Of a stretch of DNA of 64,000 nucleotides, positions 206-34,127 are shown piece by piece (position 1 is the stretch's first letter; each line of letters starts with the position of its first letter). A program made the position numbers and the translations under genes. Under the pieces are notes generated by a model. The model was not told the DNA's origin. It did no database searches and saw nothing but the letters and a program-made list of their open reading frames with translations. Source of the stretch: Biscogniauxia marginata (taxonomy: Eukaryota; Ascomycota; Sordariomycetes; Xylariales; Xylariaceae); assembly GCA_022695795.1 (NCBI GenBank), contig MU404102.1, positions 243,485 through 307,484 on the forward strand, read 5' to 3'.

Positions 206-3200
206 CTAGGCATCCTCATCCCTCAGGGACTCGTAATCCTCCTCTTCCTCGTCGGCATACCGTAGTCCTTCGTTCATGGCAGCAAAAGAGCGGACAAACC
301 TGGCATCGGGTCGTGAACCAGCATATATACTCGGTATCATGAGCACGGGCGGAGCGCCTACATCCTGACTGGTGTATACGGCCTTCAAGAAACCTAGCTG
401 CCAGCCTGCGACGTACCATGGAAACGAAGGGTACTTGGAATAATACATCTTAAAGCAGAAAGATGCCTTGAGCAAGTCCCAAACTGACAGCCCGACCCCG
501 ACAAGGCCTTCTTCACGTAGAGATCGGATCGTCTTGGAGTTGACTTTGTTCGTGGGGGCGATATCACGCCACTTGTCGTAGGCGTTAGTCACCTTGACAT
601 TGAATGAATCCCGACTTTTCGCCCATTCGATAGCTACAGTATCGATATCCTTCTTCAATTCCTCCAAAACGGTTTCCCATGTCGTCATCCTGAATCTCCC
701 CTCTTCTTTTGCCTTGGCGCGCTCGGCGAACGACCTCTGCATCTTCTCATAGTACTGGTAGAACCTCACTAGGTCCTTATCGAACGGTACAGCTTGGTTG
801 AGGAACTGGTCAAGTGCTCTGAGTTCCGCATCGATTGTCGGTTTTCCAACGGCAAATTTGACATAGTCGATGATATGGGTTGGCTGTCCAATCCCGTCCC
901 ACTCATTGCTTTTATATCTAGGTAGCATGGGATCAGATCGACTCTTTCTTCGCTGAGGGTCAGCCTGTTTTTCGTTTAGACTTTTCCGTAAACGCGACCA
1001 GTCTTGCGCAGTGAAGACAATGCCTTGCTTGGCTCGATCTACCAAGTGGCTGATAAGAGTACTCAAGAAAATAGCCGGCTCATCCCGAACAGAGTTCCTC
1101 GAGTAGCAAAGCTTCTCCTTGTAGTTTGTACAGGTACCGAGTAGGTTAGCGTGCATGTTGAACCGGAAAGCTTGATCCAAGAACTCCGAGATCACATCTT
1201 CGGCGCCGTAGGAAAGGTGAAGATCTTGATACGATTGAGTCTTCTTAGAAACGATGCCTTGTCCAAACAGGTCAGGAACAACAGGGACGTCAGCATTCGT
1301 GAAGTTCTCAACGAGGCTTGGTTCCCAGCAAATCCAGGCAATATCCCCATCGTAATCGCCACCCGAAAGCTTCTCCGCGAGAGGCGTATTACCTTTCGTG
1401 GAAAATATGATGACATCTTTCAGAGAGCCTAATTCGGGTTTAAAGACAGCTTTCACCCTCTGAATATCGCTCGGGTAATGTGCTGGAGTGCGTGCAACGA
1501 GGATATCCATACCGTGAAGAAATGTCTCGCAAAAGCCAGACCGCTCATCGGAGAATTTGGACGAAAATCCGAGGTGAACTTCATCTTCTTTCAACACTCC
1601 AAGAAAATCTACTACCATATAGGCGTAGGTGGAACGCCCGATCTTCACGTTGAGACGCGTCTGAAGTTCCTCGCATTTCTCCTTTCGCAGGGCCCAAGCA
1701 ATTTTTCGTAAAAACTCTAGTTTTGTCGGGTCGAAACCCTGCGACAGGAGAAGCTCCATCTGGTCTTCTCGGCTAGTTGGAAGCCCAGCTGTCCAAGGGA
1801 CGTGGCCGAGGTTCACGCGGTCTTTTCTACGACTGGCGGGCGAATTCTCATAAACCCAGAGTCTGAATTGAGCGGGATCTTGCATCGCCGTCTTTTGGGC
1901 CTCCATTTCCTCTAGGAGACTGTCTCTCATAAAGTCACCGACGTGCACCTTCATCTTGGACGGACTGATGGCCCTATCTTCAAGAATAGGAAGCAACTGG
2001 AGATTCAGATGCGCTGATTTTAATTCCCTGGATTCATTACGGACCTCGAATGTTCGATGATCCTCTTCATCATAATCGCACTTCCATTTCCGTTGGGAAG
2101 GACTTGTTTCTATCCACACGTCATCACTGGTATCGGTCGTGTCGCGGATCCAAAAGCCCTTCGCGCTGCCAAAGCGGCCTTGGTATCCCGCTGGAACCTC
2201 GTCTAAGCCCATGATATCACGTATTCTTCGTGCAAGACCTATTGACATGCGAGAAATACCATCATTCATGACTTTTCCAGTCGGGGAAAGAATGTCTTGC
2301 GGTCGATGTCGAATCTGATGAGGTTGAAGGACAACGGTAGGGTGTGTCCGACTAAGGCCTAGAGGTTGTCAACAATAGGTAATAACTTTAGGCCTCGACG
2401 AATGTACCTAGCGTTATCCGAGAGAAGAGCTTGAGCAATGGCTGTGTTTGATTTAGGTCAATCTGCAGGAGCCAGTCAAGGAGACATTCTCGACTCATTT
2501 TGGTGTGGGCTCTGAATGATTCACCTTTTGGGGAGTACTTCCCCGTCTTATGCCGAATTAGGTCATTGCCATCCTCTGCAAAGAGGTATATTCTCTCCTG
2601 GTGTATTGTTTTAGATTCGGGGCCGAGCGTATCTTCCCTGGCGACTTTCTTCGGCAAGGAAGGTTTGACGAAGAATGACGCCCATATTCGACCAAGAAAC
2701 ACGTGCGAACTTTTAGCAAGCCAGTGATGAATATCATCGTGGATAGGTTCAAGAACTTTCAGTTCCGACATTGATGGCATAACAATCTCAAGGAAACGAT
2801 CAGACCCGAAACGTCGATCGAGCCTATGTGGCAAGTCAAGCTTGAGTGGTTGAAGTTGAAAATGAAATAGAGGCCCGGTTTTGGACATATTCGTCGACAG
2901 AGACGCGCCGAGTACAACCACTTGGTCTGTGGAGCAGAACTTGTCATTCAGACTTGCAGTCCAGGCCTCAGGTCGTGATTTCTCGGGAAAGCTCTTTCCA
3001 TTGAAAATAGGCAATGATCGTAGTCTTTCCCATAACTTTGCTTGATTCGTAAATGTTGGATCGTACTCAATACGTAGGTCATCAATCTTGATCCCACAAT
3101 GGAGAGCAATCCGTAGGATCTCCCAACGCACCGCAAGGGGTGCGGCATCAAGATGTGAAGGAAGAGAAGCTGTTAAACTAGATATCAGACTATAGTGAAT

Positions 3201-4457
3201 AGCAGGGTAAGGAGATCTTTACTTACGCCAGACATCCCGAAGTCGCTCCTCGATCTCTTGTGTACCAGTTGCCCCTAAACCACCAAGCTTCATGGGAGAC
3301 TTACTTGGGGATACTGCTGGAGCTGCATGGATCTCTGGCGAAGCGGGTTGGTCAAGCTGGGTATTTGCAACTATCGGCGGAAAATCGAACTCTGAGGATG
3401 AGTTAGTTGGTGGAATACTCCTGCCAAGCAAACTCCGGGCACTCTTCTGAGACTCGAGAAAATGGTTAAAGGACAACTCGAGAGCGCGTTCAGTGCCTGA
3501 AGATGGCGCAAGCGAGTCTGAATCAGATGCAGGCGGCGGAAGTCTCATCTTTTCCTGGGTGCTTGCCTCGACAGTGTACTGGGTTTCTTGAGAGGGAGGG
3601 AGGGGATCATTTTCTTCTCTTTCGGAGAAGACCTGTGACACGAACGTTGATCTGCTCGTGTTGGCAGACTCTGTGAGCTTATATAAGTCTTTCCCTTTAT
3701 TAGACCGTGCTTCACGCGCCTGGAGTGACGGTACCGGCTTAGTGGAGGGACTGATTGGGCGATGCATTTCAGCCTGATTAATATCAAACTCAAGCTCAGA
3801 TGGAGAATCTGGCCGTCCAGTATCTTCGGCTATGCTCCTAGATCTCTTTAAAGAATGTATGCTAGTTCCCCATTCTTCTGAGCGGCGTTTAGATTGCCGA
3901 CTCAGGGAAGGAGAAGGGGAAGGAGGAGGGTCTTCAGGGGTTAGGTTTGTATGGTTCGTATGAAACGAGCTTGTCAGGGAGCTTCGGGCTTCGCTGATGG
4001 GACGTGGGATTTTACCTGGGCTCAGGCTATCAAGGATATCTAATAGGAGATCCAGAAGCTGACGTCGCTCAGGTTCGGTTGTAGCCCGTGGCAATTGAGT
4101 GAAAGAGGGTGTAACGTCAGGTTCTCCAAGGGGCTTTTTAACCCACTTGGTATGGATATCACGGACGCCTCGATCGAAACGACGCCGGAGCTCTGATGAA
4201 TTACCCTGATGGTACTGATACTTGAGACGGTCATAGAATACTAGCTCGTGATAGTAAGGCAGCATTCTCTTTGCCTGGGGTGTTAAACTTGGGTCAGGCC
4301 GCTGCAGGTTCAAGCTGTACAAGTTGGAGAACTCCAGGAACCAAATATCGAAGTCACCAGCTTTAGCACGTTTCTTGGACGGCGTTACAGGCATGGAAGA
4401 CACGGCAGACCGGTAATCAGACCCGGATATAGATCCAGATCCCTCCCACGTCCCCAT
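206..4457 (-). CDS. RNA-dependent RNA polymerase (QDE-1/SAD-1 family)
   Basis: Three exons on the minus strand: 4457-3227, 3169-2408 and 2358-206. The introns (3170-3226, 57 nt; 2359-2407, 49 nt) are GT-AG and keep frame, giving about 1381 aa, the usual size for fungal RdRPs. The catalytic loop is visible as SGGDYDGD at residues 996-1003; its three aspartates are the metal ligands of eukaryotic cellular RdRPs. Joining exons 2 and 3 restores the conserved HPTVVLQPHQIRHR and VMNDG blocks, which supports that junction. The first 410 residues are Ser/Pro-rich and poorly conserved, as is normal. Family members make double-stranded RNA from aberrant transcripts for quelling or meiotic silencing by unpaired DNA. 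Which paralogue this is cannot be decided here. The start is the first ATG in frame; no other gene lies within 1.9 kb upstream. Confidence 0.95.
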
Positions 4458-11423: not shown

Positions 11424-12518
11424 GCTTGCAGCGTGCAGTTGTTCCAAGAAGATGAGATGAATAAAGTGGACGGAAACGTCATCGCATTCTAAAGCCGCGC
11501 CTTTTTAACTTAAGACCTTTTCAGAGAATCGTAAGCCGGCGTCGGTCGTAACTCGATTGGTGTTCATATCTGTGTTACCCGGAGACAATCCCGACTGCGA
11601 TATCGTATACTTCTCTCTCTATAGCCGATGTGTCAGCTCACGATATCAATACCAAGGTTTTTCTTTTCGTTAGGTTGACGATATCGAGATAAGAACTGAA
11701 AGATAAATACAGCCCCCGCTTGTCCCACCTCCAAGTCCCGGGAACCAGGGTTGGAAGCCGATCCACTAGATAGGTAGGGTAGATTATAGAAGGTTAATCG
11801 GTAATTGTATTAGTTAGTGAGTTGCATAGTGGCTGAGGGATCACAGGGCATTAGGAACAGATCGCGAGTAGTGGAAGCAAGAAAGATAGATATAGTCTTG
11901 GAAAGAGCTGGAATGCGATAAGCACCTGCGGTCAAGACGCTGAAGATTGTTTTACATTTTCCACATTCCTGTTCTAAACATAGTGCTACCGACGTTTATA
12001 AACCAAGGGGTCGGGCGTTACAAGTCTATGGGGGAAACTTAGTTGTGGATGTAACGCTATGAATAGTCTTACAAGTAAAATAGGGATAAAGTTGTAAGTG
12101 CTTGTTCTCCGTCAGCGGCTTACACATGAACCATCGGATAAAAGCAAAAGAAGCCGATATACGCCAAGTGTAGTAATAGATGAATAATTTCTAGATCTAG
12201 TGAATTTACTTTCACCAGCATTATAATTGAGTGATAGTCATTAGTAGTATTAGATTCAGATAGATAGGTTAACTACCTACCTAACCTAGGTAGTTGAGGG
12301 GAACGAACTATTCACTCCTTCGTGCGACAAACGCGGGGATTGACTCGCAGTCCACCATGTCGCATGGCTCCGATCGCGCCCTCAATTGTATAAGTATGGA
12401 ATTATAAATACGGAGGTAAGAAATCACTTAAAGCAAGGCGCACGGCCTTAAACTAAGTGTCGTGCTAATGTGCAACTCTGTAAACGTTATACTACAATCC
12501 TGACGCAACACCGAAGAG
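11424..12518. promoter_or_regulatory. Divergent promoter region of MFS transporter and amidase
   Basis: The 1.1 kb between two opposite start codons must contain both promoters. A short inverted repeat is visible: AACTACCTA at 12271-12279 and TAGGTAGTT at 12287-12295, with a 7-nt loop, 224 bp upstream of the amidase ATG. It could be a regulator site, but the same TACCTA words occur throughout the window, so this is weak. Confidence 0.4.
12271..12295. repeat. Perfect 9-bp inverted repeat upstream of amidase
   Basis: Arms AACTACCTA and TAGGTAGTT separated by 7 nt. It may be a low-complexity palindrome made of the dispersed TACCTA/TAGGTA words rather than a specific operator. Confidence 0.45.
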
Positions 12519-14435
12519 ATGACTGCCAAAACCTGGGAAGACCTCGCTGCAGCGAAGAGACAAAAGCTGAGGGATTCCATCCCTGAGGAGTGGCGCATCC
12601 CCAACCACTTGCTGCCTCCCGACAGTCAAGACGATGTCAGGAGTTTCCCTGAGACGTCGGGGTGGTTCTCTGCGGAGGAGCTGGCTATCACGGGATGCAC
12701 TGCGCTGGAACTACTACCTAGGTTGGCTTCCGGGGAGCTCAAGTCTGAAGCCGTGACGAGGGCTTTCTGTAAGAGGGCGGCTGCAGCACATCAACTGGTA
12801 TGTTGTTCAGCCGGGAATACAGAGAATTGCGGATATAATACTAAACCCTGCCCACTACACTCATACACGCCTGTAGATCTCCAGACTGACAACGCATTGC
12901 TACAGACAAACTGTCTTTCGGAAACCTGCTTTGAGCGCGCTATCGCGACAGCGAAGGAACTAGATGCGCACCTCGCCGCGACTGGGCAGCCAGTCGGGCC
13001 GCTCCACGGCCTGCCCATTTCGCTCAAGGACAACTTCAACCTGCAGGGCCTTGACTCCACCGTCGGGTTCATATCGCACATCGGCGATCCGGCGAAGTAC
13101 GACGCGGTGCTCGCGGACCTGCTGCGCGAGGCCGGCGCCGTCTTCTACGTCAAGACCAACGTGCCGACGGCCATGATGATCGCCGAGAGCGTGAACCACA
13201 CGTTTGGGCGGACCGTCAGCCCGCTCAACCGCCGCCTCACGAGCGGCGGCAGCTCGGGCGGCGAGTCGGCGCTCATCGCGTTCGGCGGCAGCCCCCTGGG
13301 CGTCGGTACCGACATTGGGGGCTCGCTGCGCATCCCCGCGGCCTGCACGGGGATATTCACGCTGCGGCCGTCGTTTGGGCGGTTCCCGACGCTGCGGTGC
13401 CGCTCGGGCATGCCGGGCCAGGAGGCCGTACAGTCGGTCAACGGCCCGCTGACGCGCACCCTCGCCGACCTCGAGTTCTACGCGCGCGCCGTCGTCGGCG
13501 CCGAGCCCTGGCACGCCGACCCGCGATGCCTGCCCATCCCGTGGCGCGGCGTCGCGCTGCCCGCGCGGCTGAAGGTGGCCGTCATGTGGGACGACGGCAT
13601 GGCGCTGCCGACGCCGCCGGTCGCGAGGGCGCTGCGCGAGACGGTCGCACGGCTCCGGGCCGCGGGCCACGAGGTTATCGACTGGTCGTCGGAGGACCAG
13701 CTCGAGGGCGCGGACCTGCTGAACCGCATGTTCGTCGCCGACGGCGGGCGGGCAATTCGCCGGGAGCTGGAGAGGACGGGCGAGCCGTGGCGGCCAGAGA
13801 TGAAGATGTACCAGGAGGCGCGCGAGCTTGGCGCTCTTGAGTACTGGCAGCTGCATCTCGACCGACAGGCGTACCAGAAGAGGTACCTGGACCGCTGGCT
13901 GGCCGCGGGTATAGATGCAATATTATGTCCGACCACCCCTTACAGCAGCGTGGAGAACGGCAAGTTCAAGCACGGTGAGTAGACCCCCCAGGCTTTTATC
14001 CATACGCACCAATCGCGTCGTCGTCGTCAAGGGGGGGCAGATTGCAATTAACTGGTTTTACTGATTCTTTTAATCGGGGACTAATAGTGGGATATACGGG
14101 CGTGTTCAATGTGCTCGACTACGCCTGCATATCCTTTCCCACCGGGGTCACCGTCGACAAATCTGTCGATGTCGCGCTGGGCGACGCGTACAAGCCCTTA
14201 ACAGACCTAGACCGGGAGATACAGATAGAATGTAATCCGCCCCTGTTCCCCCCTTAATTGTCTGCGCAATTATATATAGACGTAAAGACGGGTGTGATAT
14301 TTGCTAACTGTTGGGATATTAGATAACGCCGACGCGGTTCACGGGATGCCCATAAACCTACAACTTGTCGCGCAGCGATTAGAGGAGGAGAAATGTGTGG
14401 AGATCTGTAAAGAAGTGTTGAGGGTCCTAAGTTAA
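12519..14435 (+). CDS. Amidase-signature hydrolase (acetamidase-like)
   Basis: Exons 12519-12797, 12906-13974, 14088-14231 and 14323-14435 with GT-AG introns of 108, 113 and 91 nt; 534 aa, the size of fungal acetamidases. The amidase-signature Ser-cisSer-Lys triad is present: Lys134 in LKDN, Ser209 in GGSSGGE and Ser233 in GTDIGGSLRIP. The C-terminal VGYTGVFNVLDY and VHGMPINLQL blocks are recovered only by splicing. The enzyme should hydrolyse a short-chain or aromatic amide to acid plus ammonia in the cytosol. Intron 1 is a multiple of three and has no stop, so retention would insert 36 residues just before the conserved TNCLSE block. Exon 2 is markedly GC-rich compared with its flanks. It is divergent to a transporter and next to two Zn2Cys6 regulators. 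Confidence 0.93.
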
Positions 14436-22062: not shown

Positions 22063-22640
22063 TCAAGCGTAAGAGTAGCAGAATAAGCCATCAGCAAAAC
22101 TAACAAGGTCGCCGATCTCATAGACGTTTTCCGCGATCACGTACAGGCTCACGGCATCATCCAGAGTTGCAGCCTCCCTTATGCTGCCCATTATGGACCG
22201 CGCACCCTGAATAGAAGTATGGAAGTTAATTGAAGAGTGCTCAAAAGGCCAACCCAAACTAGGGAAAAATCCACTTCGATGACTTGCAGCCGATTTTGCA
22301 GATCCTGCATCTGCCAGATTGCCCAGGCTCTGTCAATCATGGCATGATGAAGCCTCATGACATGTCAGCTAGATGTACACATTGACGCTTCAGCAATGTC
22401 ATAACCGCAGGCTAACGAGAGATAACTCTCTCAGTCGTTTTCATAAGTGTGGTAGATGAAAATCACCTCTATTAATGAGACAAATGTAAACTGACAGAAT
22501 GTCGGGTCCCCAGACGATGCGAAGAAATCACCTGCGGGATCCCCGGCTATGATGAAGTGACCCCTAGCGTGGACTCCCGTGCTTACCCCGGCGGCCTGCA
22601 TTTTATCCTGGAACGAACCGATAGTCTTAGGGGTTTTGTA
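22063..22640 (-). pseudogene. Tyrosinase pseudogene, 3' half
   Basis: Read on the minus strand from 22640, this begins YKTPKTIGSFQDKMQAAGV. It then shows the copper-B region of fungal tyrosinases, GVHARGHF and GDPAGDFFASSGDPTFC. A probable intron (about 22355-22494) follows, then LHHAMIDRAWAIWQ, carrying the HHxxxDR copper ligands, and a C-terminal stretch ending FADGLFCYSYA with the stop at 22063-22065. Substitutions at usually invariant sites (VWWIWQ is expected where AWAIWQ is seen) indicate relaxed constraint. The left end of a TIR element starts right at 22641; the missing N-terminal part lies on the far side at 26024-27041. Family role: oxidation of monophenols and diphenols to quinones (melanin or secondary metabolism); here it cannot be functional. 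Confidence 0.85.
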
Positions 22641-22825
22641 CGGTGCTCCATTAGAGCGTATCCGCCAAAACCCCAAAACCTGAATTGGCTAAATCGCGAT
22701 TTGGCAATTCGCGATTCGGCCACTTAGGGTTTTGGCCGAATTTAGCAATTAGATTTACTAAGTGAAGTAATTAATAAATACCTTTTGTTTTAAAAGTCGT
22801 GCATTAAAGTAAATAAAAATCGAAA
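22641..22825 (+). repeat. Left terminal inverted repeat
   Basis: Left arm of the TIR pair. It also contains a local palindromic patch, AAATCGCGATTT, near 22691-22702. The right arm has an extra block of roughly 15 bp (CCAATTGGCCAAAA-like), so the arms align with at least one gap. Confidence 0.75.
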
Positions 22826-23544
22826 AAACATCGGGTTTTTATTTTAAAGGTAATAATTACTTAATTGAATTTTTAAAATTAATATATACTTTATAAGTGC
22901 TTTTTTAATTTAATTATATAAATAAATATAATTATTATATAGTTAAATAAATAAGTTGATTTAATTTTTTAAAATATAAATAACTTAATTAAAAAATTAA
23001 AAAATTTTAAATTTTAAATTTTAAATTTTTATATATATATATTTTTATTTTTATTATATATAACTTTAAAATTTATTTAAAAATTTATTATCATTTAATA
23101 ATTAATTTTAATTTTATAATATAATTTTTAATTATATTTAATTATTATTAAGTTTTTATTATATCATTTTTATAGTTTTTATTAATATATTTAATTTTAA
23201 ATTTTTCGATTTTTATTTTTAATTAAATTATTAAATTGTTTTAATAAAAAAAGGTTTAAAACTTTTTCGACTTTTATATATAAAATTATAACTTTTTTTT
23301 AAAAAAGTCGATTTTATATAAAATATTAAATAATGTTTTTTAAATTAAAATTAAAATTATAAAGCCTTTTAATTAAAGTTATTAATTAAAAATTATAATT
23401 TTATATAAAAATTAAAATAAAATATTTAATTATATAATATATATATATATATTTATAAATATAATAAATTAATATAATAAATTAATAAAGTTTATATAAA
23501 TTTTTAATTTATATATATTATAACGTAACTTATTATATATTTTT

Positions 23545-24016
23545 TGTGACGAACCTCCCTGTGTGTTCCTAGTCAGCTAACTTCATAGGTAAGTACGTAC
23601 TGGGTTTCCTTGATTTAAAGGTAACAGTGGATTAAGATTAGTTTAAGAGATTTATAATGCTTTGTTCGTCAAAGAGATTTCAAGGTACTTTCATTATAGT
23701 ATTAAAGAGTGATTATAGTCTTAGATTAATAGCTAAAGAACTAGAAATGAATAACTAGATATAAAGGAAATTCCATCCTTCTTATACTCGTTCTCCTTTA
23801 TACATTCCTTCCCTATAGGTATGTTGGATACCTGTTGGATCTAACTGGATCTCAGATCACTTTAGATCTAGTTATTGACAATCTCTCTGGATCTCAGATC
23901 CACTGAGATCCTAGTCACGTGATGTTGCATCACATCTTCCTTTTTTAGAGGTTTGTTTCGGGGTCCTCTTAACCCGTTCCGTCCCCTGGTCCTTTCGGAC
24001 CAGTTGGTTCGTAACA
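23545..24016. mobile_element. Solo LTR nested in the TIR element
   Basis: A 472-bp block of normal base composition inside the AT-rich element. It begins TGTGACGAACC and ends GGTTCGTAACA, so the ends are TG...CA and form an 11-bp inverted repeat with one mismatch. It is bordered by TTTTT at 23540-23544 and TTTTT at 24017-24021, a plausible 5-bp target duplication, although poly-T context weakens it. Internal duplicated words (CTGGATCTCAGATC twice near 23848 and 23888) are present. No gag/pol or second LTR was seen, so this is a solo LTR left by recombination. Its lack of AT saturation suggests it arrived after the host element was mutated. Confidence 0.75.
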
Positions 24017-24299
24017 TTTTTATATTATATTTTTTTATATTTATAAATAAGTTTATAATTTTTTAAATACTTTATAACTTATATATATAAATTATAAATA
24101 ATTTCTTTTTTTAATTTTTTAATTTATTAATTAATTTTATAAATTATAATTATAAAAGTTTTATTTTATATTTTTATATTTATATTTAATAATAATTATA
24201 ATTATAATTTTATTTATAAAAAAATTAATTTAAAAAATTAATTAATAAAAATCTTTTTATAATTAAATATTATTAATATATTATATAAACGAATAAATA

Positions 24300-24870
24300 A
24301 AATGTTATAATAATGCTTTATAATTATTATATTAATAACTTTAAAAGGTCAGCGATTTTACTTATAAAAATAAAATTTAAAGCTTTAATTTTGTTATATA
24401 TAATAATTAACTTAATTACTTTATAATTAGTTAACCTTTTATAATAAAATTTTTTATATAATTCGTTTTTAAATTATAAAAGGCTAAAAAACGTATTAAA
24501 ATGATTTCGAGTATAATAAATAAATTATTAAATCCTTTAAAATATTTATTTAACTTTATAAGTATATATTAAAGTTTAATAAATCATTATTTTATAATAG
24601 CGTTTATTAACTTATTACTTAATATAACTCCGAAATTATCTTGATTTTAAAACGTTATACCTCTTTATAATTATTCGCTTTAAAGTTAATTTAAATAAAC
24701 GACTTTTATATATTTACTTATTAAATAAAATTATTATTATAATAATACTTTATAACCGCTATATTAATAATTTTAAAAGGTTAACAATTTTACTTATAAA
24801 AGTGAAATTTAAAGCTTTAATTTTATTATATATAATAACTAGCTTAATTATTTTATAATTAGTTAATTTC
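24300..24870 (+). repeat. Imperfect direct repeat of ~140 bp, 432-bp period
   Basis: The segment about 24300-24446 (containing TTTAAAGCTTTAATTTTG) recurs at about 24732-24870 in the same orientation with scattered transitions. The copies share TATATTAATAA and AATTAGTTAA words. It is internal to the AT-rich element. Confidence 0.55.
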
Positions 24871-25867
24871 TTATAACATAAAACAAGCTTATAAACGAAA
24901 TAATTTCCTATATAAAATCGACTTTTTCGAAAATTTATAACTTTATACGTAAAAATTAGAAAAATCTCGAACTTTTTTTTTAGTTATATAATTTTATAAT
25001 TTAAAAAAAAAGTAAAATACATAAAAAAATACATAAAAAGATTTATACATTTTATTATAATTTTATTTTTTACGCGTTTTCTTTTTGTGTTTATTAATAT
25101 TATTTTATTTTTATTTTAATTAAACTATATAGTTATATAATTAGAAAAAAAGGTTTAAAATTTTTCTAAATTTTATATATAAAGTTATAAATTTTCGAAA
25201 AAGTCGATTTTATATAAAAAAACTATTTCGTTTATAAGCTTATTTTATTTACTCGCTTATATAATACGTTAAATTTAATTAATTATAGTTATATAAAATA
25301 ATTATATAATTTTAAAAATTAAAAATATTATATATTATAAATTAATTAATTTATTAACTTTTAATTTTATAATTAATATAACGTGCATTATATATAAATA
25401 AACTATATAAACTATATAAACAAATAAGTTACTCGATTTTTTAAAAATTCTTAATTTTACACGTAAAAATCGTATAAATCTCGGACTTTTTTTTAGTTAT
25501 ATAATTATATAAAATAACTAAATATAAAATTAAAAAAAATTTAAATTTAAATTCTTAATAAAAATGTTTAAAACTTTTACGATTTTTATATGCGAAGTTA
25601 TAAATTTTTTAAAAAAGTCGATTTTATATAAAAAATTAAATAATTTACTTGTTTATATAACTTACTCACTTATAAAGTATATTAATTATATTTAAAATTT
25701 CGTTTTATAAAAAATATTTTATATTAATTATAAAAAGTTAAATTATAATTATAAAAAATAAAAAATTAAATTAAAATTAATATATATTATAAGTAAAATA
25801 TATGAAATTTTTTAATTTTTTAAATTAAATTAAGAAATTAATATCTTAAAAATGAAAACCCGATATT

Positions 25868-26021
25868 TTTCCGATTTTTATTTACTTTAATATACGACTT
25901 TTAAAAATAGTAATTATTAATTATCTCAAAACCTAAATTTGCTAGATCGCGAATTGGCTAATTCAGGTTTTGGCCAATTGGGGTTTTGGGGTTTTGGCGG
26001 ATGCGCTCTAATGGGCCACCG
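25868..26021 (-). repeat. Right terminal inverted repeat
   Basis: Reverse complement matches the left arm at the outer 45 bp or so and again in the inner block TTTTAAAAGTCG followed by ATTAAAGTAAATAAAAATCG. The differences are mostly C/T and G/A changes and one gap. Confidence 0.75.
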
Positions 26022-26023
26022 TA

Positions 26024-27041
26024 GTTTTGATAAGGCTTACGATATCCTCTGTGCGGGTGTGGCGCGAACTAAAGTAGTTAGAGATGTCACGTCTGAGACA
26101 GCGGGGATTATACCCGAACCCGTCAGTTCGAGGGTTAGTTGGTGGTGCCGGAGCAATCGCCGGAGTCATTAGCCTATGAAATCGTCACATGAGGACAGTC
26201 CACCATAAGTGGCCTGTTCTTAGACCTACCCAAGGGTTGCTGTCTTACTGAGCAAACAGGTTGGTAGATACTCGGAGGTCGAGTGTGATGTCAAGTAACC
26301 ATACTTCTTGAACGGTCCGGTATAAACCCTCCCATCCGGTTGGTAATCTTCTCGCCGTTACCGCTCATACTAGTATCACTGCCGTCAAAAATCGGAGACG
26401 TCTCTGGGTCTGATGCCCACCTACCCAATCCCAGTACTACGGAAGCAGTAGGTTAGAAGCAACGATACACTCTCCCATCTCATGATGTTCACATACTGGT
26501 CGAGACCTGTTATAGCCGCATTCGTTGTGAAGAGCTTGCTCATAGGCCTAGGTAAAATATCTATGCCTTGACAAGAAGTTGCCCCGTGTTAATCTTAGTT
26601 CCTTGGCCAAGTTATAGACCATAGGCCTCCATGGTGGGATATGTCTGACTGTGCCGTGGAATGACAATGTCTGATTGAAGTGGACAGCTACGAAGCCGTC
26701 ATATCGTGATTTCGCCCCCGGATACTTCGTCGGGTCTAGATTCGAGTGATTCGTAGTTAGACACGAGACGGCATCGATATAAGCCTTCTTCTCTACGAAT
26801 TCGAGGTCACCCCTTAACTAGATCAGTCCACCATCTAAGTTTAGCAGAAATAATTTCTGAAAATTCGCCATTCCTGCCGAACCAATAACTTGTTCTGAGT
26901 GTAAGTCGTTAACTTGGCTAGCTGAGCGTCAAGAGCCGACTTCCCCTGGTCCCATAGATCTGACACAGCATCTGCCGAGACAGATTTTTCCAAATGCCCT
27001 CCATGTACTAATATGAGTGTTAACTTTGCTAGGACCAACAT
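26024..27041 (-). pseudogene. Tyrosinase pseudogene, 5' half
   Basis: On the minus strand, ATG at 27041 opens a hydrophobic leader (MLVLAKLTLILV) and KLLVRQEWR, the normal start of secreted fungal tyrosinase-like proteins. Further pieces follow in order: EKKAYIDAVSCL near 26790, YPGAKSRYDGFVAVHFNQTL and FHGT (copper-A histidines) near 26720-26655, GNFLSRHRYFT near 26580-26550, AYEQALHNECGY, SPIFDGSDTSMSGNG near 26370, and GFGYNPRCLRRDIS near 26090. SWHRYF is expected where SRHRYF is seen, and the next Trp codon is a TAG stop (26548-26550). The pieces also lie in different frames. It stops at the TA bordering the TIR element at 26022-26023; the continuation is at 22640 and below. Confidence 0.85.
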
Positions 27042-31101: not shown

Positions 31102-32882
31102 TTTGGAGTAGATCACAAGCACGATAAGGATCCTAGGACAATAAAGATGCGAAACTCGAGGTTATCATGTCTTGGAGGTACAAGAACGGATTATATTTAA
31201 GAGAAAGGGACCAGTTTGCACAAGAAATTTTCTTCAACACTACAGCTGGGCCTTGCAAAAGTAAACTTAAGGACCATATGCAAGCCACACCAGCCACATA
31301 CTAGCCACGATGTGGCCCGTGCTGAGGGCTGGCACAAAGTGGTCCCACTAAATGGCTAGAGTAGCTATCTATCAGCTGGTGGTCTATTTTCCCACCTGCT
31401 AGCGCCTTTGCCAAGACATGCCAAGCCTTGCTGTACACCAGACCCCTGAAATAGGTAATGTTCACACCCACTTCGCACTGGCACAGGTTAAAGCACCGGC
31501 CTACCCACGAAGAAGGAAGTAGTTGAGGGCAAGATTTGGGCAGGATTTTAGGCTGTCATAAACGGATCAGTCAATACGCTGGCCCGATTCCTAAACCGGG
31601 AGTTGAATTAACTGTCACAGCCATTGCCATAGCAGTTGCCTGTTGCGGTTGCTGTGGTGAAGCTATTCGGATGCGTTGCCACAGCTCAGTTGCCATGGCT
31701 TAACTTTGGTACTTAAGAAATGTACGTAACTCGCTAGTAGTGTGAGGAATTACCTTTCTTTCCTCACATAATTCTTTTTCATTGCAATACAGAGATTACT
31801 CGAGCCCTCGTGCCCTGGGTCTTATTGCAGTTCTCTTCAAAGAGTTAACTACAATCAGATCTAGTCGTCTTTTCAAGATAGCTAGAGAACCCTAGCAACA
31901 CGACCATTTTATATATACCTAGTTTTCTGTGGGTCCTGTCCTCCTTAGTCCTTTGCCTGGAGGTCAACCTTCTTAGCTTATACTTTGAGTTTAAGATTTA
32001 CCAATCCTGTATGAGATTTCAAAGTAAACTACCTACAGACAGTGAATATTACATTGTATTAAGCCTGAGTTTGTAATCAAGCTCTTTCTCCTTTGAATAA
32101 CTTTGATCCCCTTTTGGTGCTTACGGCTATGGAGACTTGGGTTATGGTTTAACTTGGCACTAACATATTCACCGTGTCATAATTCAATTTGCCTTTTATA
32201 ATGATGGTTTACTATGAATTTACAGCTTACAAGATCTCTGCGGAAAGGCACACCCCAAATTTATGTCTTATTTATCAAGCCTATTGAGCTTGGAAAACTG
32301 TTTGCTCTTTATAAGTCTACCTATATACCTAAAGTGTTGTCGCTTTCCTCTTTCAGTCTTGCCTGTTTGACAATGTAATATTTAGATTATACGCTAAGCA
32401 AAAGAACGATTTTATGTCGATTCTAAAATAGTACTAGTGCTAGAATCTCGTAATGATACTAATCCGTACTACATACAAGAGGCACTGGTAAGGAGCAGGC
32501 ATAAGTACAAGCAAGGTCTTATCTAGATTATCTAAGTTCCTTATGTACATTAGATCAAACCAACCTATCACCTAGTCTGTACCTATGGACAAGAGCGGGG
32601 AAATACCACAAACCCTTCGACAGGAGGGAGAGGGGTTTCTCATATTTGTCTCTACCTACAATTAAAGAGGCATAGTTGTGTAATAACCCAAGTAAAGTCG
32701 GTATGTATTATCTATCTCCTTTTAGTCGTTAAGGAGTAAAACCTAGTTTCTGTTGATGTATAATGCCCAGTGAGTTTTATATTCAAGGCTTAACCACTTC
32801 TAGGAATTAGATAATGAATACCTAGATAACCGACAAAGAGACTGACGTATCAGCCGACATCCTCCCTCCCTTATCTCAAGGA
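31102..32882. other. Intergenic spacer with LTR-like stretch
   Basis: 1.8 kb between two divergent genes (GMP synthase and nickel permease). It contains the LTR-like segment listed separately; the remainder is AT-leaning and without recognisable genes. Confidence 0.5.
31613..31900. repeat. Possible solo LTR fragment
   Basis: A 288-bp stretch starting TGTCACAGCCATTGCC and ending CCCTAGCAACA. It has TG...CA ends and GCCATTGCCAT/GTTGC-rich sequence like fungal copia LTR starts. The 5-bp flanks (TTAAC and CGACC) do not match, so the boundaries or the call itself may be wrong. Confidence 0.25.
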
Positions 32883-34127
32883 ATGCCTTGGATGCCCTCC
32901 TCTCTCTGCCGGGCGCTGCCCCTCCCCCGAGGGCTGAAGGCACTCCCGCAACCCGTGCTCAGCATCATTGCGCTTCTGATCCTCGTCAACCTCGCGGTCT
33001 GGGCCGTAGTGGGTATCGTCCTGCGCTACTATGCGGCGTCACTGATTAGCTCGGCCGTACTCTCGTACTCGTTGGGCTTGCGGCATGCCCTAGATGCCGA
33101 CCACATCAGCGCCATCGACCTGATGACGCGGCGGCTGATCGCGTCGGGCCAGCGGCCCGTGACCGTCGGCACCTTCTTCAGCCTCGGCCACTCGACCATC
33201 GTGATCATTACGTGCATCGTCGTGGCCGCCACGTCGGGTGCCCTGCGCGACCGCTTCGACAACTTCCAGTACGTCGGCGGCATCGTTGGCACCAGCGTGA
33301 GCGCCGCATTCCTCATCCTGCTCTGCCTCGGCAACAGCTGGGTGCTCTACCGTCTGGTGCAGCGGCTCCGGCAGGTTTTACGCGAGCCGGATCCGCATCA
33401 CCCGGAGGAGGACAGCGAAGGCGACAGGGCTGATGGGGACCAGGCGGCTGCGAACAACCTGCAGCTGGAGGGCGCGGGGTTCCTGGCCCACGTGTTCCGA
33501 AAGCTGTTTCGGATCGTGGATCGCCCGTGGAAGATGTACCCTCTCGGTGTCCTGTTTGGGCTCGGTTTCGATACAAGTTCCGAGATTGCGATCCTGGGGA
33601 TTGCGAGTCTTCAGGGGGCGCAGGGGACGAGTCTCTGGGTTATTCTAGTTTTCCCCTTGCTATTTACCGGTATGCTCACTCCCCTTAGTACGTCACGAGA
33701 TCAAGTAATTCGGACTCGCTGAAATAAATATCCACTAGCTGGCATGTGTCTCCTCGATACTACCGACGGCGCCCTCATGATGGCGCTCTACACATCTAAG
33801 GCATTCGCTCGAGATACTGTCGCGATCCTATACTACTCAATCGTACTTACAGGCATCACGGTCGTAGTGTCGGCATTCATAGGCATCATACAGGTCCTTT
33901 CGTTAGTTCAGAACGTGGCAGAGCCTGAGGGCAACTTTTGGGACGGGTTAAGTGCGATTAGTGATCATTTTGAGATTATCGGCGGCAGTATATGTGGCCT
34001 CTTCCTGGTAGTCGGTGTAGGTTCCGTAGCTGTATATAAACCATGGAGAAGGAGGGTTGAGAAGCGAAGAGCCCAAAGGATACTATCTGACGACGCCGGG
34101 GGTGTTTTTCATGATGCAGAAACTTGA
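32883..34127 (+). CDS. NiCoT-family high-affinity nickel/cobalt permease
   Basis: Two exons, 32883-33669 and 33739-34127, with a 69-nt GT-AG intron; 391 aa. All four NiCoT signatures are present: RHALDADHI at residues 67-75 (the metal-binding HX4DH motif in helix II), LGHST at 101-105, LGFDTSSE at 227-234, and GMCLLDTTDG at 264-273, the last restored by splicing. About eight hydrophobic segments are separated by a charged Glu/Asp/His-rich loop (encoded about 33380-33470), as usual between the two halves. It imports Ni2+ or Co2+ across the plasma membrane, in fungi mainly to supply urease. That makes a link to nitrogen release from amides or urea conceivable, but the gene is far from the amidase. 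Exon 1 is GC-rich relative to the flanks. Confidence 0.93.

What the first reader, a model, noticed from the sequence alone, without database searches (positions are those of the whole stretch)
22063..27041. Tyrosinase gene split by a transposon that itself carries a solo LTR: three nested layers
Two minus-strand fragments that look like ordinary spacer are the two halves of one tyrosinase. The right piece (26024-27041) has the leader, the copper-A region and YNPRCLRRDIS. The left piece (22063-22640) continues with YKTPKTIGSFQ, the copper-B GHF...GDP region and HHAMIDR. Between them lies a 3381-bp TIR element flanked by TA, and in it a 472-bp LTR flanked by TTTTT. Order of events: gene, DNA transposon, AT-saturation (RIP-like), then LTR insertion and loss. 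The host gene also has a W-to-stop and a lost Trp in SWHRYF, so it has decayed beyond the insertion.
Basis: partly seen in the sequence, partly recalled or inferred. Interest (0 to 1): 0.75.

Follow-up and report, generated by a model that had tools for sequence, protein, structure and literature searches.

The report
Dead tyrosinase split by nested transposons
In a Xylaria-related fungus a decayed tyrosinase gene is cut in two by a dead DNA transposon that itself holds two other mobile-DNA remnants: a clear but ordinary genomic fossil, whose transposon belongs to a different family than first thought.

Summary
The two minus-strand pieces are one tyrosinase pseudogene: tblastn of an intact relative (Camillea tinctor, 370 aa) gives residues 1-181 and 204-253 on the right piece and 251-370 on the left. 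Main correction: TA is not the target-site duplication. The element is 22639-26023 (3385 bp), has its own TA ends (TACGG...CCGTA) and sits between two copies of GTTTTG; the one other complete copy found has CTCGGT twice. With the 6-bp duplication counted once, the junction reads TRTEDIVSLIKTPKTIGSFQD against TRTEDIVSLIQTSTTIGTFQN in the relative; with TA it is out of frame. Six bp and TAYGG..CCRTA are printed for IS3EU transposons, not Tc1/mariner. The interior is CpA-depleted as after RIP; the LTR seems lightly hit too. Whether the gene died before or by the insertion is unresolved. Unexplained: ends of family copies differ by 5-6%, yet the AT-rich interiors of the two complete copies show no homology above shuffled controls. 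No transposase was found. New member of a known kind.

The parts
26024..27041 (-). right piece of tyrosinase pseudogene: start Met, leader, copper-A region, up to ...VSLIKT (includes one copy of the 6-bp duplication)
   Evidence: PF00264 1-131; P0001 residues 1-181 and 204-253
22063..22638 (-). left piece of tyrosinase pseudogene: ...TPKTIGSFQ, copper-B region, C-terminus and stop
   Evidence: PF00264 151-213; P0001 residues 251-370; stop read
22633..22638 (.). target-site duplication, copy 1, GTTTTG
26024..26029 (.). target-site duplication, copy 2, GTTTTG
22639..26023 (.). IS3EU-type DNA transposon remnant, 3385 bp with its nested inserts, ends TACGGTG...CACCGTA
22639..22705 (+). left terminal inverted repeat arm (67 nt, 84% complementary to the right arm)
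25957..26023 (-). right terminal inverted repeat arm
23540..23544 (.). LTR target-site duplication copy 1, TTTTT (low information in this T-rich context)
23545..24016 (+). solo LTR, 472 bp, apparently lightly RIP-mutated
24017..24021 (.). LTR target-site duplication copy 2, TTTTT
24111..25270 (.). third nested insert: AT-rich repeat; 24111-25216 is 75% identical to an AT island in contig C216; right end TACGTT at 25270 by comparison with other copies; exact left end not fixed
24880..25249 (.). palindromic core of that repeat, 78% self-complementary, many copies genome-wide

Best explanation
A tyrosinase gene of a Xylariales fungus was hit by a DNA transposon of the IS3EU type, which duplicated six bases (GTTTTG) and has TACGG...CCGTA ends. 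Repeat-induced point mutation (RIP) and decay turned the element's interior into DNA of 3-17% GC (200-base blocks). A palindromic AT-rich repeat and an LTR retrotransposon landed inside it; the retrotransposon was then reduced to one LTR, which took a light dose of RIP. The gene is a pseudogene whose decay is not clearly RIP-biased. Shown: collinear halves, the duplications, the in-frame junction, the nesting. Supported but with a biased reference: C>T excess in the LTR. Inferred: the superfamily (from ends and duplication length, no transposase left), LTR-LTR recombination, and the order of the two inner inserts.
For: Collinear halves of one protein. No close paralogue seen: outside this locus P0001 matched 7 of the 15 other fetched tyrosinase loci at E 1e-4, with aligned stretches 31-51% identical. 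6-bp duplications in 2 of 2 complete copies, a chance match of 6-mers being 68 in 200000 random pairs, and the in-frame junction. End motif: 12 of 12 places found with a pattern that leaves out the first letters begin TACGG; a pattern that includes them, with up to 3 mismatches, finds 17 places (12 exact, 5 with 1-3 mismatches; reversed-pattern control 0). Printed IS3EU traits: 6-bp duplications, TIRs over 30 bp, TAYGG..CCRTA (passages of PMC12730594); TA..TA termini, TSDs usually 6 bp (passages of PMC10045372). RIP: (CpA+TpG)/(ApC+GpT) 0.32 and 0.25 in the interior against 1.10 for the rest of the window; 149 of 150 scored RVT_1 matches carry stops; LTR changes of the C>T/G>A kind fall on 16 of 39 CpA, 6 of 46 CpT, 1 of 22 CpC, 0 of 8 CpG sites; four DNA-methyltransferase loci without stops. 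Solo LTR: seven sibling copies with matching 5-bp duplications (read by eye); RT relics 4.1-4.5 kb upstream on the same strand for 3 of 46 LTR matches.
Against: No transposase belonging to the element: 19 of 19 DDE_1 matches carry stops and only one shares a contig with an end of the family, 7 kb outside it; DDE_3 none; rva_4 one sub-threshold match elsewhere. Only 2 complete copies; 13 of 17 end matches are single. If RIP made both interiors from one ancestral sequence they should still align; window and C27 do not beyond the ends, although plain blastn, with no control for AT-richness, extended the left match to 908 columns at 74%. The reference for the LTR counts was chosen for high GC, which by itself favours C>T. 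One other interior (C2) has a less extreme substrate index, 0.60. TTTTT duplications mean little in T-rich DNA.
Confidence: 0.8

Rival explanations
1. One reading: a TIR element with a TA duplication (Tc1/mariner-type).
For: TA stands next to CGGTG at all 13 ends read out; terminal inverted repeats.
Against: The junction with TA as duplication is out of frame, with GTTTTG in frame and of the relative's length; both complete copies repeat six further bases outside the TA; no DDE_3 match in the genome.
Confidence: 0.04
2. The element makes 6-bp duplications but belongs to another superfamily (e.g. Polinton, hAT6), its ends resembling IS3EU by chance or convergence.
For: No transposase was found; Polinton has 6-bp duplications (PMC10045372 passage) and a hAT6 group with 6 bp is named in a reference title.
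Against: The terminal motif TAYGG..CCRTA printed for fungal IS3EU fits 12 of 12 ends found without using those letters.
Confidence: 0.18
3. The gene was already dead when the element landed.
For: 12 of 114 near-invariant residues are lost, against 0-3 in 12 intact relatives, which however helped to define the positions; my rough conversion gives about 4-5% neutral change per site, against about 3% per lineage at the element ends (pairwise 5.3% left, 6.2% right).
Against: The ranges overlap; the junction itself carries no frameshift; the conversion is inference and assumes that the ends escaped RIP.
Confidence: 0.4
4. The AT-rich interior is largely original or captured AT-rich sequence, not RIP.
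For: Interiors of the two complete copies do not align beyond about 300 bp from the ends while simulated RIP copies of comparable divergence do; the palindromic repeat is AT-rich in every copy printed (GC 0.09-0.24).
Against: CpA depletion in the interior, C>T excess at CpA in the LTR family, stops in 149 of 150 RT matches.
Confidence: 0.2

Closest known systems
IS3EU DNA transposons of fungi (Pucciniales families, PMC12730594; Styx of Zymoseptoria, PMC10853768; passages read)
   Same: 6-bp target-site duplications; TAYGG..CCRTA ends (as printed for the Pucciniales families); long TIRs; conserved TIRs and single TIRs as reported for Styx
   Different: no transposase or passenger gene detected; interior AT-saturated; shorter than Styx (7927 bp)
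Solo LTRs of crapaud and grenouille in Podospora (PMC10787394; passages and section 11 read)
   Same: solo/fragment LTRs mostly with few RIP mutations beside RIPped full copies; part of the LTR variable between copies
   Different: which part is variable relative to transcription was not determined here; relationship of the elements not tested; many copies here are RIP-mutated
AT-rich elements of Aspergillus flavus (PMC9910759; abstract and outline read)
   Same: AT-rich elements, some with homology to RIP-like mutated transposons
   Different: those are enriched near telomeres or at centromeres; here the island interrupts a gene and its TIR ends have about 50% GC

Membership tests
IS3EU | 6-bp target-site duplications | tested here: met
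   2 of 2 complete copies, GTTTTG and CTCGGT
IS3EU | termini TAYGG..CCRTA (TA..TA) | tested here: met
   12 of 12 ends found without these letters begin TACGG; printed motif
IS3EU | TIRs longer than 30 bp | tested here: met
   67-nt arms, 84% complementary
IS3EU | IS3EU DDD/E transposase (autonomous members) | tested here: inconclusive
   rva_4, chosen from memory as a stand-in, gave one sub-threshold match on another contig than any end; interior too AT-rich to judge
Tc1/mariner/pogo | TA target-site duplication | tested here: not met
LTR retrotransposon (solo LTR) | TG..CA ends with short inverted termini | tested here: met
   TGTGACGAACC/GGTTCGTAACA; the motif alone is not significant in the window
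LTR retrotransposon (solo LTR) | 5-bp target-site duplication | tested here: met
   TTTTT here (weak); sibling copies ATATT, TTTAT, GTTAC, GTATA, AATAA, GCTAG, AGGAC read by eye; the other 22 of 30 loci were truncated matches, mismatched or not checked
LTR retrotransposon (solo LTR) | full-length members with reverse transcriptase | tested here: inconclusive
Tyrosinase (PF00264) | copper-A and copper-B regions of the domain | tested here: met
   profile 1-131, 151-198, 199-213 across the two pieces; the left ones sub-threshold alone, strong by tblastn
RIP | C>T/G>A bias with CpA preference in repeats | tested here: met
   LTR family, against a high-GC reference that favours this direction
RIP | RID-type DNA methyltransferase | tested here: inconclusive
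   four PF00145 loci, not resolved into RID or DIM-2

The most novel reading that the evidence does not exclude
The family consists of IS3EU 'shells': about 200-300 bp of mobile end sequence, too short to be hit by RIP, that stay intact and recognisable while whatever lies between them is turned to AT-saturated filler or exchanged. RIP would then not only kill transposons but leave behind ready-made non-autonomous elements with working ends.
Probability: 0.12. Interest if true: 0.55.

Novelty: new member of a known kind. Interest (0 to 1): 0.3.

Why it matters
It fixes the duplication length of a fungal transposon family by a clean test, the closing of a host reading frame at the empty site, and so adds a probable IS3EU family from Xylariales. 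The contrast between spared ends and AT-saturated, unalignable interiors is a small but testable puzzle about how RIP treats element ends.

Tried and rejected
TA as duplication (rejected). Tc1/mariner or pogo transposase in the element (no link). PF24764 (rva_4) as transposase trace (sub-threshold, elsewhere). RIP as cause of the gene's decay: of 12 lost near-invariant residues 5 need a RIP-type change, 6 a change of another type, 1 either; against this, the right piece's dinucleotide indices (TpA/ApT 1.01, substrate index 0.93) are mildly RIP-like while the left piece's are not (0.64, 1.49). One shared interior in the two complete copies: not supported; my first control had little power at 20% divergence and was repeated with stricter scoring. 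TIR motif in print: three 10-base words of it gave 23 papers, 15 listed, none on transposons by title. IS3EU together with Xylariales: one search listed 12 of 907 papers holding any two of four terms, none of the 12 with IS3EU; this does not show absence. LTR-RT distances were tallied from the 46 listed LTR matches (40 of 1218 candidates scored) and the 57 of 150 RT matches that lie on the same contigs.
Full report
Where it lies. The window is C48:243485-307484 of an unnamed 45.3-Mb assembly in 229 contigs; no relatives are held. The broken gene's closest listed proteins are from Xylariales: Camillea tinctor (63% identity), Xylaria grammica (61%), Xylaria polymorpha (60%); 409 of 773 candidates passed the threshold and the best 120 were listed. 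That the host is a member of Xylariales is inferred from this one gene.

The gene. Pfam tyrosinase matches 18 stretches of the genome; three belong to this locus and run in profile order 1-131, 151-198, 199-213 on the minus strand, the last two below threshold on their own. tblastn of five intact relatives gives collinear pieces on both sides of the element; with P0001 they reach from residue 1 at 27041 to residue 370 at 22066, with residues 182-203 not matched. Some frame changes are introns; at residue 145/146 there is no room for one. One conserved Trp is a stop and one is Arg. Of 142 positions kept by at least 57 of 60 relatives, 114 could be read here: 102 are kept and 12 changed; the 12 nearest intact relatives keep 111-114, but they belong to the 60. 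Outside this locus P0001 matched 7 of 15 other fetched tyrosinase loci (some of them overlapping), at 31-51% over aligned stretches, so no close paralogue was seen.

The element. Its inverted arms run 22639-22705 and 25957-26023. Outside the TA the same six bases, GTTTTG, stand on both sides; the only other complete copy found (C27, 1631 bp with its TA ends) has CTCGGT on both sides. Counting the duplication once gives an in-frame junction of the same length as the relative; counting TA as duplication does not. So TA is the element's own end. Ends TAYGG..CCRTA, TIRs over 30 bp and 6-bp duplications are what PMC12730594 prints for Pucciniales IS3EU (passages read), and PMC10045372 says complete IS3EU families always have TA..TA termini with TSDs usually 6 bp (passages read). 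A pattern without the first letters found 12 ends, all of which begin TACGG; a pattern with them and up to 3 mismatches found 17, 0 for the reversed pattern. By contig these make two pairs (C48, C27) and 13 single ends (two of them on C46, 162 kb apart). Single TIRs are also reported for Styx, the IS3EU-like element of Zymoseptoria. Three single ends lie near contig ends (C90, C200, C2), so some partners may simply be missing.

Composition. In the 13 ends read, GC is 0.39-0.51 in the first 100 bp and falls to 0.00-0.08 at 200-300 bp in 10 of 13; the exceptions are C114, C111 and C135. The window's interior is depleted in CpA/TpG (indices 0.32 and 0.25; C27 0.28, C46b 0.27, C2 0.60). Ends differ pairwise by 5.3% (five left ends) and 6.2% (five right ends) over the outer 112 bases; of the left ends read, C46a, C111 and C135 were left out of that count because of gaps, truncation or divergence, and the ends on C31, C84, C16 and C92 were not read. 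Interiors: in a first comparison of 11 pairs, similarity ended about 300 bp in, apart from z 5.5, 6.0 and 3.5 in three pairs at 300-450 bp. In the stricter one, 14 window blocks from 22941 to 25721 gave z 0.1-2.1 against the C27 interior, the two blocks next to the right end 5.9 and 9.2, and two blocks holding the palindromic repeat 4.6 and 5.5 in reverse orientation; simulated RIP copies of a gene gave z 18-32 at 4% divergence per copy, 6-20 at 12% and 0.1-20 at 20%. Plain blastn, without such a control, extended the left match to 908 columns at 74% identity. Against other copies (C2, C17, C46b) some window blocks do match, in both orientations, because they hold the palindromic repeat. The interiors of the two complete copies are therefore either different sequences or far more changed than the ends.

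The inner inserts. The 472-bp unit has TG..CA ends; 46 places were listed from 40 scored of 1218 candidates. Seven sibling copies show matching 5-bp duplications (by eye). Against a consensus of seven high-GC copies, a choice that favours this direction, the LTR shows 12 C>T, 11 G>A, 5 T>C, 1 A>G and 5 transversions over 288 columns, with CpA hit most. Same-strand RT relics lie 4.1-4.5 kb upstream in 3 of 46 cases; opposite-strand LTR pieces of the same C4 cluster lie at 4.4-5.1 kb, so one of the three is less clean. In Podospora, too, solo LTRs are mostly little RIPped while LTRs of full copies are hit (PMC10787394 section 11). A further fragment lies at 23154-23323, and blocks at 25372-25721 also match it-bearing loci.

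RIP in this genome. 149 of 150 scored RVT_1 matches (of 351 candidates) and 19 of 19 DDE_1 matches carry stops; four DNA-methyltransferase loci have none.

Order of events. The element entered the gene (shown). The LTR entered the element after most of the AT-enrichment, since it has 38% GC with 1-6% GC beside it, and was then lightly mutated or came from a lightly mutated source (inference). Gene death before or at insertion cannot be told apart. Verdict: a well-supported nested fossil, ordinary in kind, with a corrected transposon class and one unexplained feature, conserved ends around unalignable AT-saturated interiors.

Noticed in passing
window 24880-25270 and copies in L074-L084: High-copy palindromic AT-rich repeat, about 430 bp with ends like AACGTA..TACGTT in several copies, and a longer form of about 1.2 kb (C216).
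   Followed up: partly
L051, L053, L054, L081-L084 and the window ends of the TACGGTG family: Transposon ends keep about 40-50% GC and 5-6% divergence while DNA 200-300 bp inward has 0-8% GC (10 of 13 ends read).
   Followed up: partly
window 25957-26023: The right end holds GGGGTTTTGGGGTTTTGG, a G-rich run that could form a quadruplex (not tested).
   Followed up: no
G000:C48:205726-206416: A second tyrosinase about 60 kb away on the same contig, 33-40% identical to P0001 over aligned stretches, so not a recent duplicate.
   Followed up: partly
G000, RVT_1 matches: 149 of 150 scored reverse transcriptase matches carry stop codons; the exception is C81:88953-89273, in a 298-aa open frame.
   Followed up: no
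L021-L049: In many copies of the solo-LTR family about 290 bp match one another and the remainder differs, like reported LTR subfamilies with a divergent half.
   Followed up: partly
window 206-3218, 12504-13982, 32826-33722: Ordinary fungal genes around the locus: RNA-dependent RNA polymerase, amidase, NicO-type nickel transporter.
   Followed up: no
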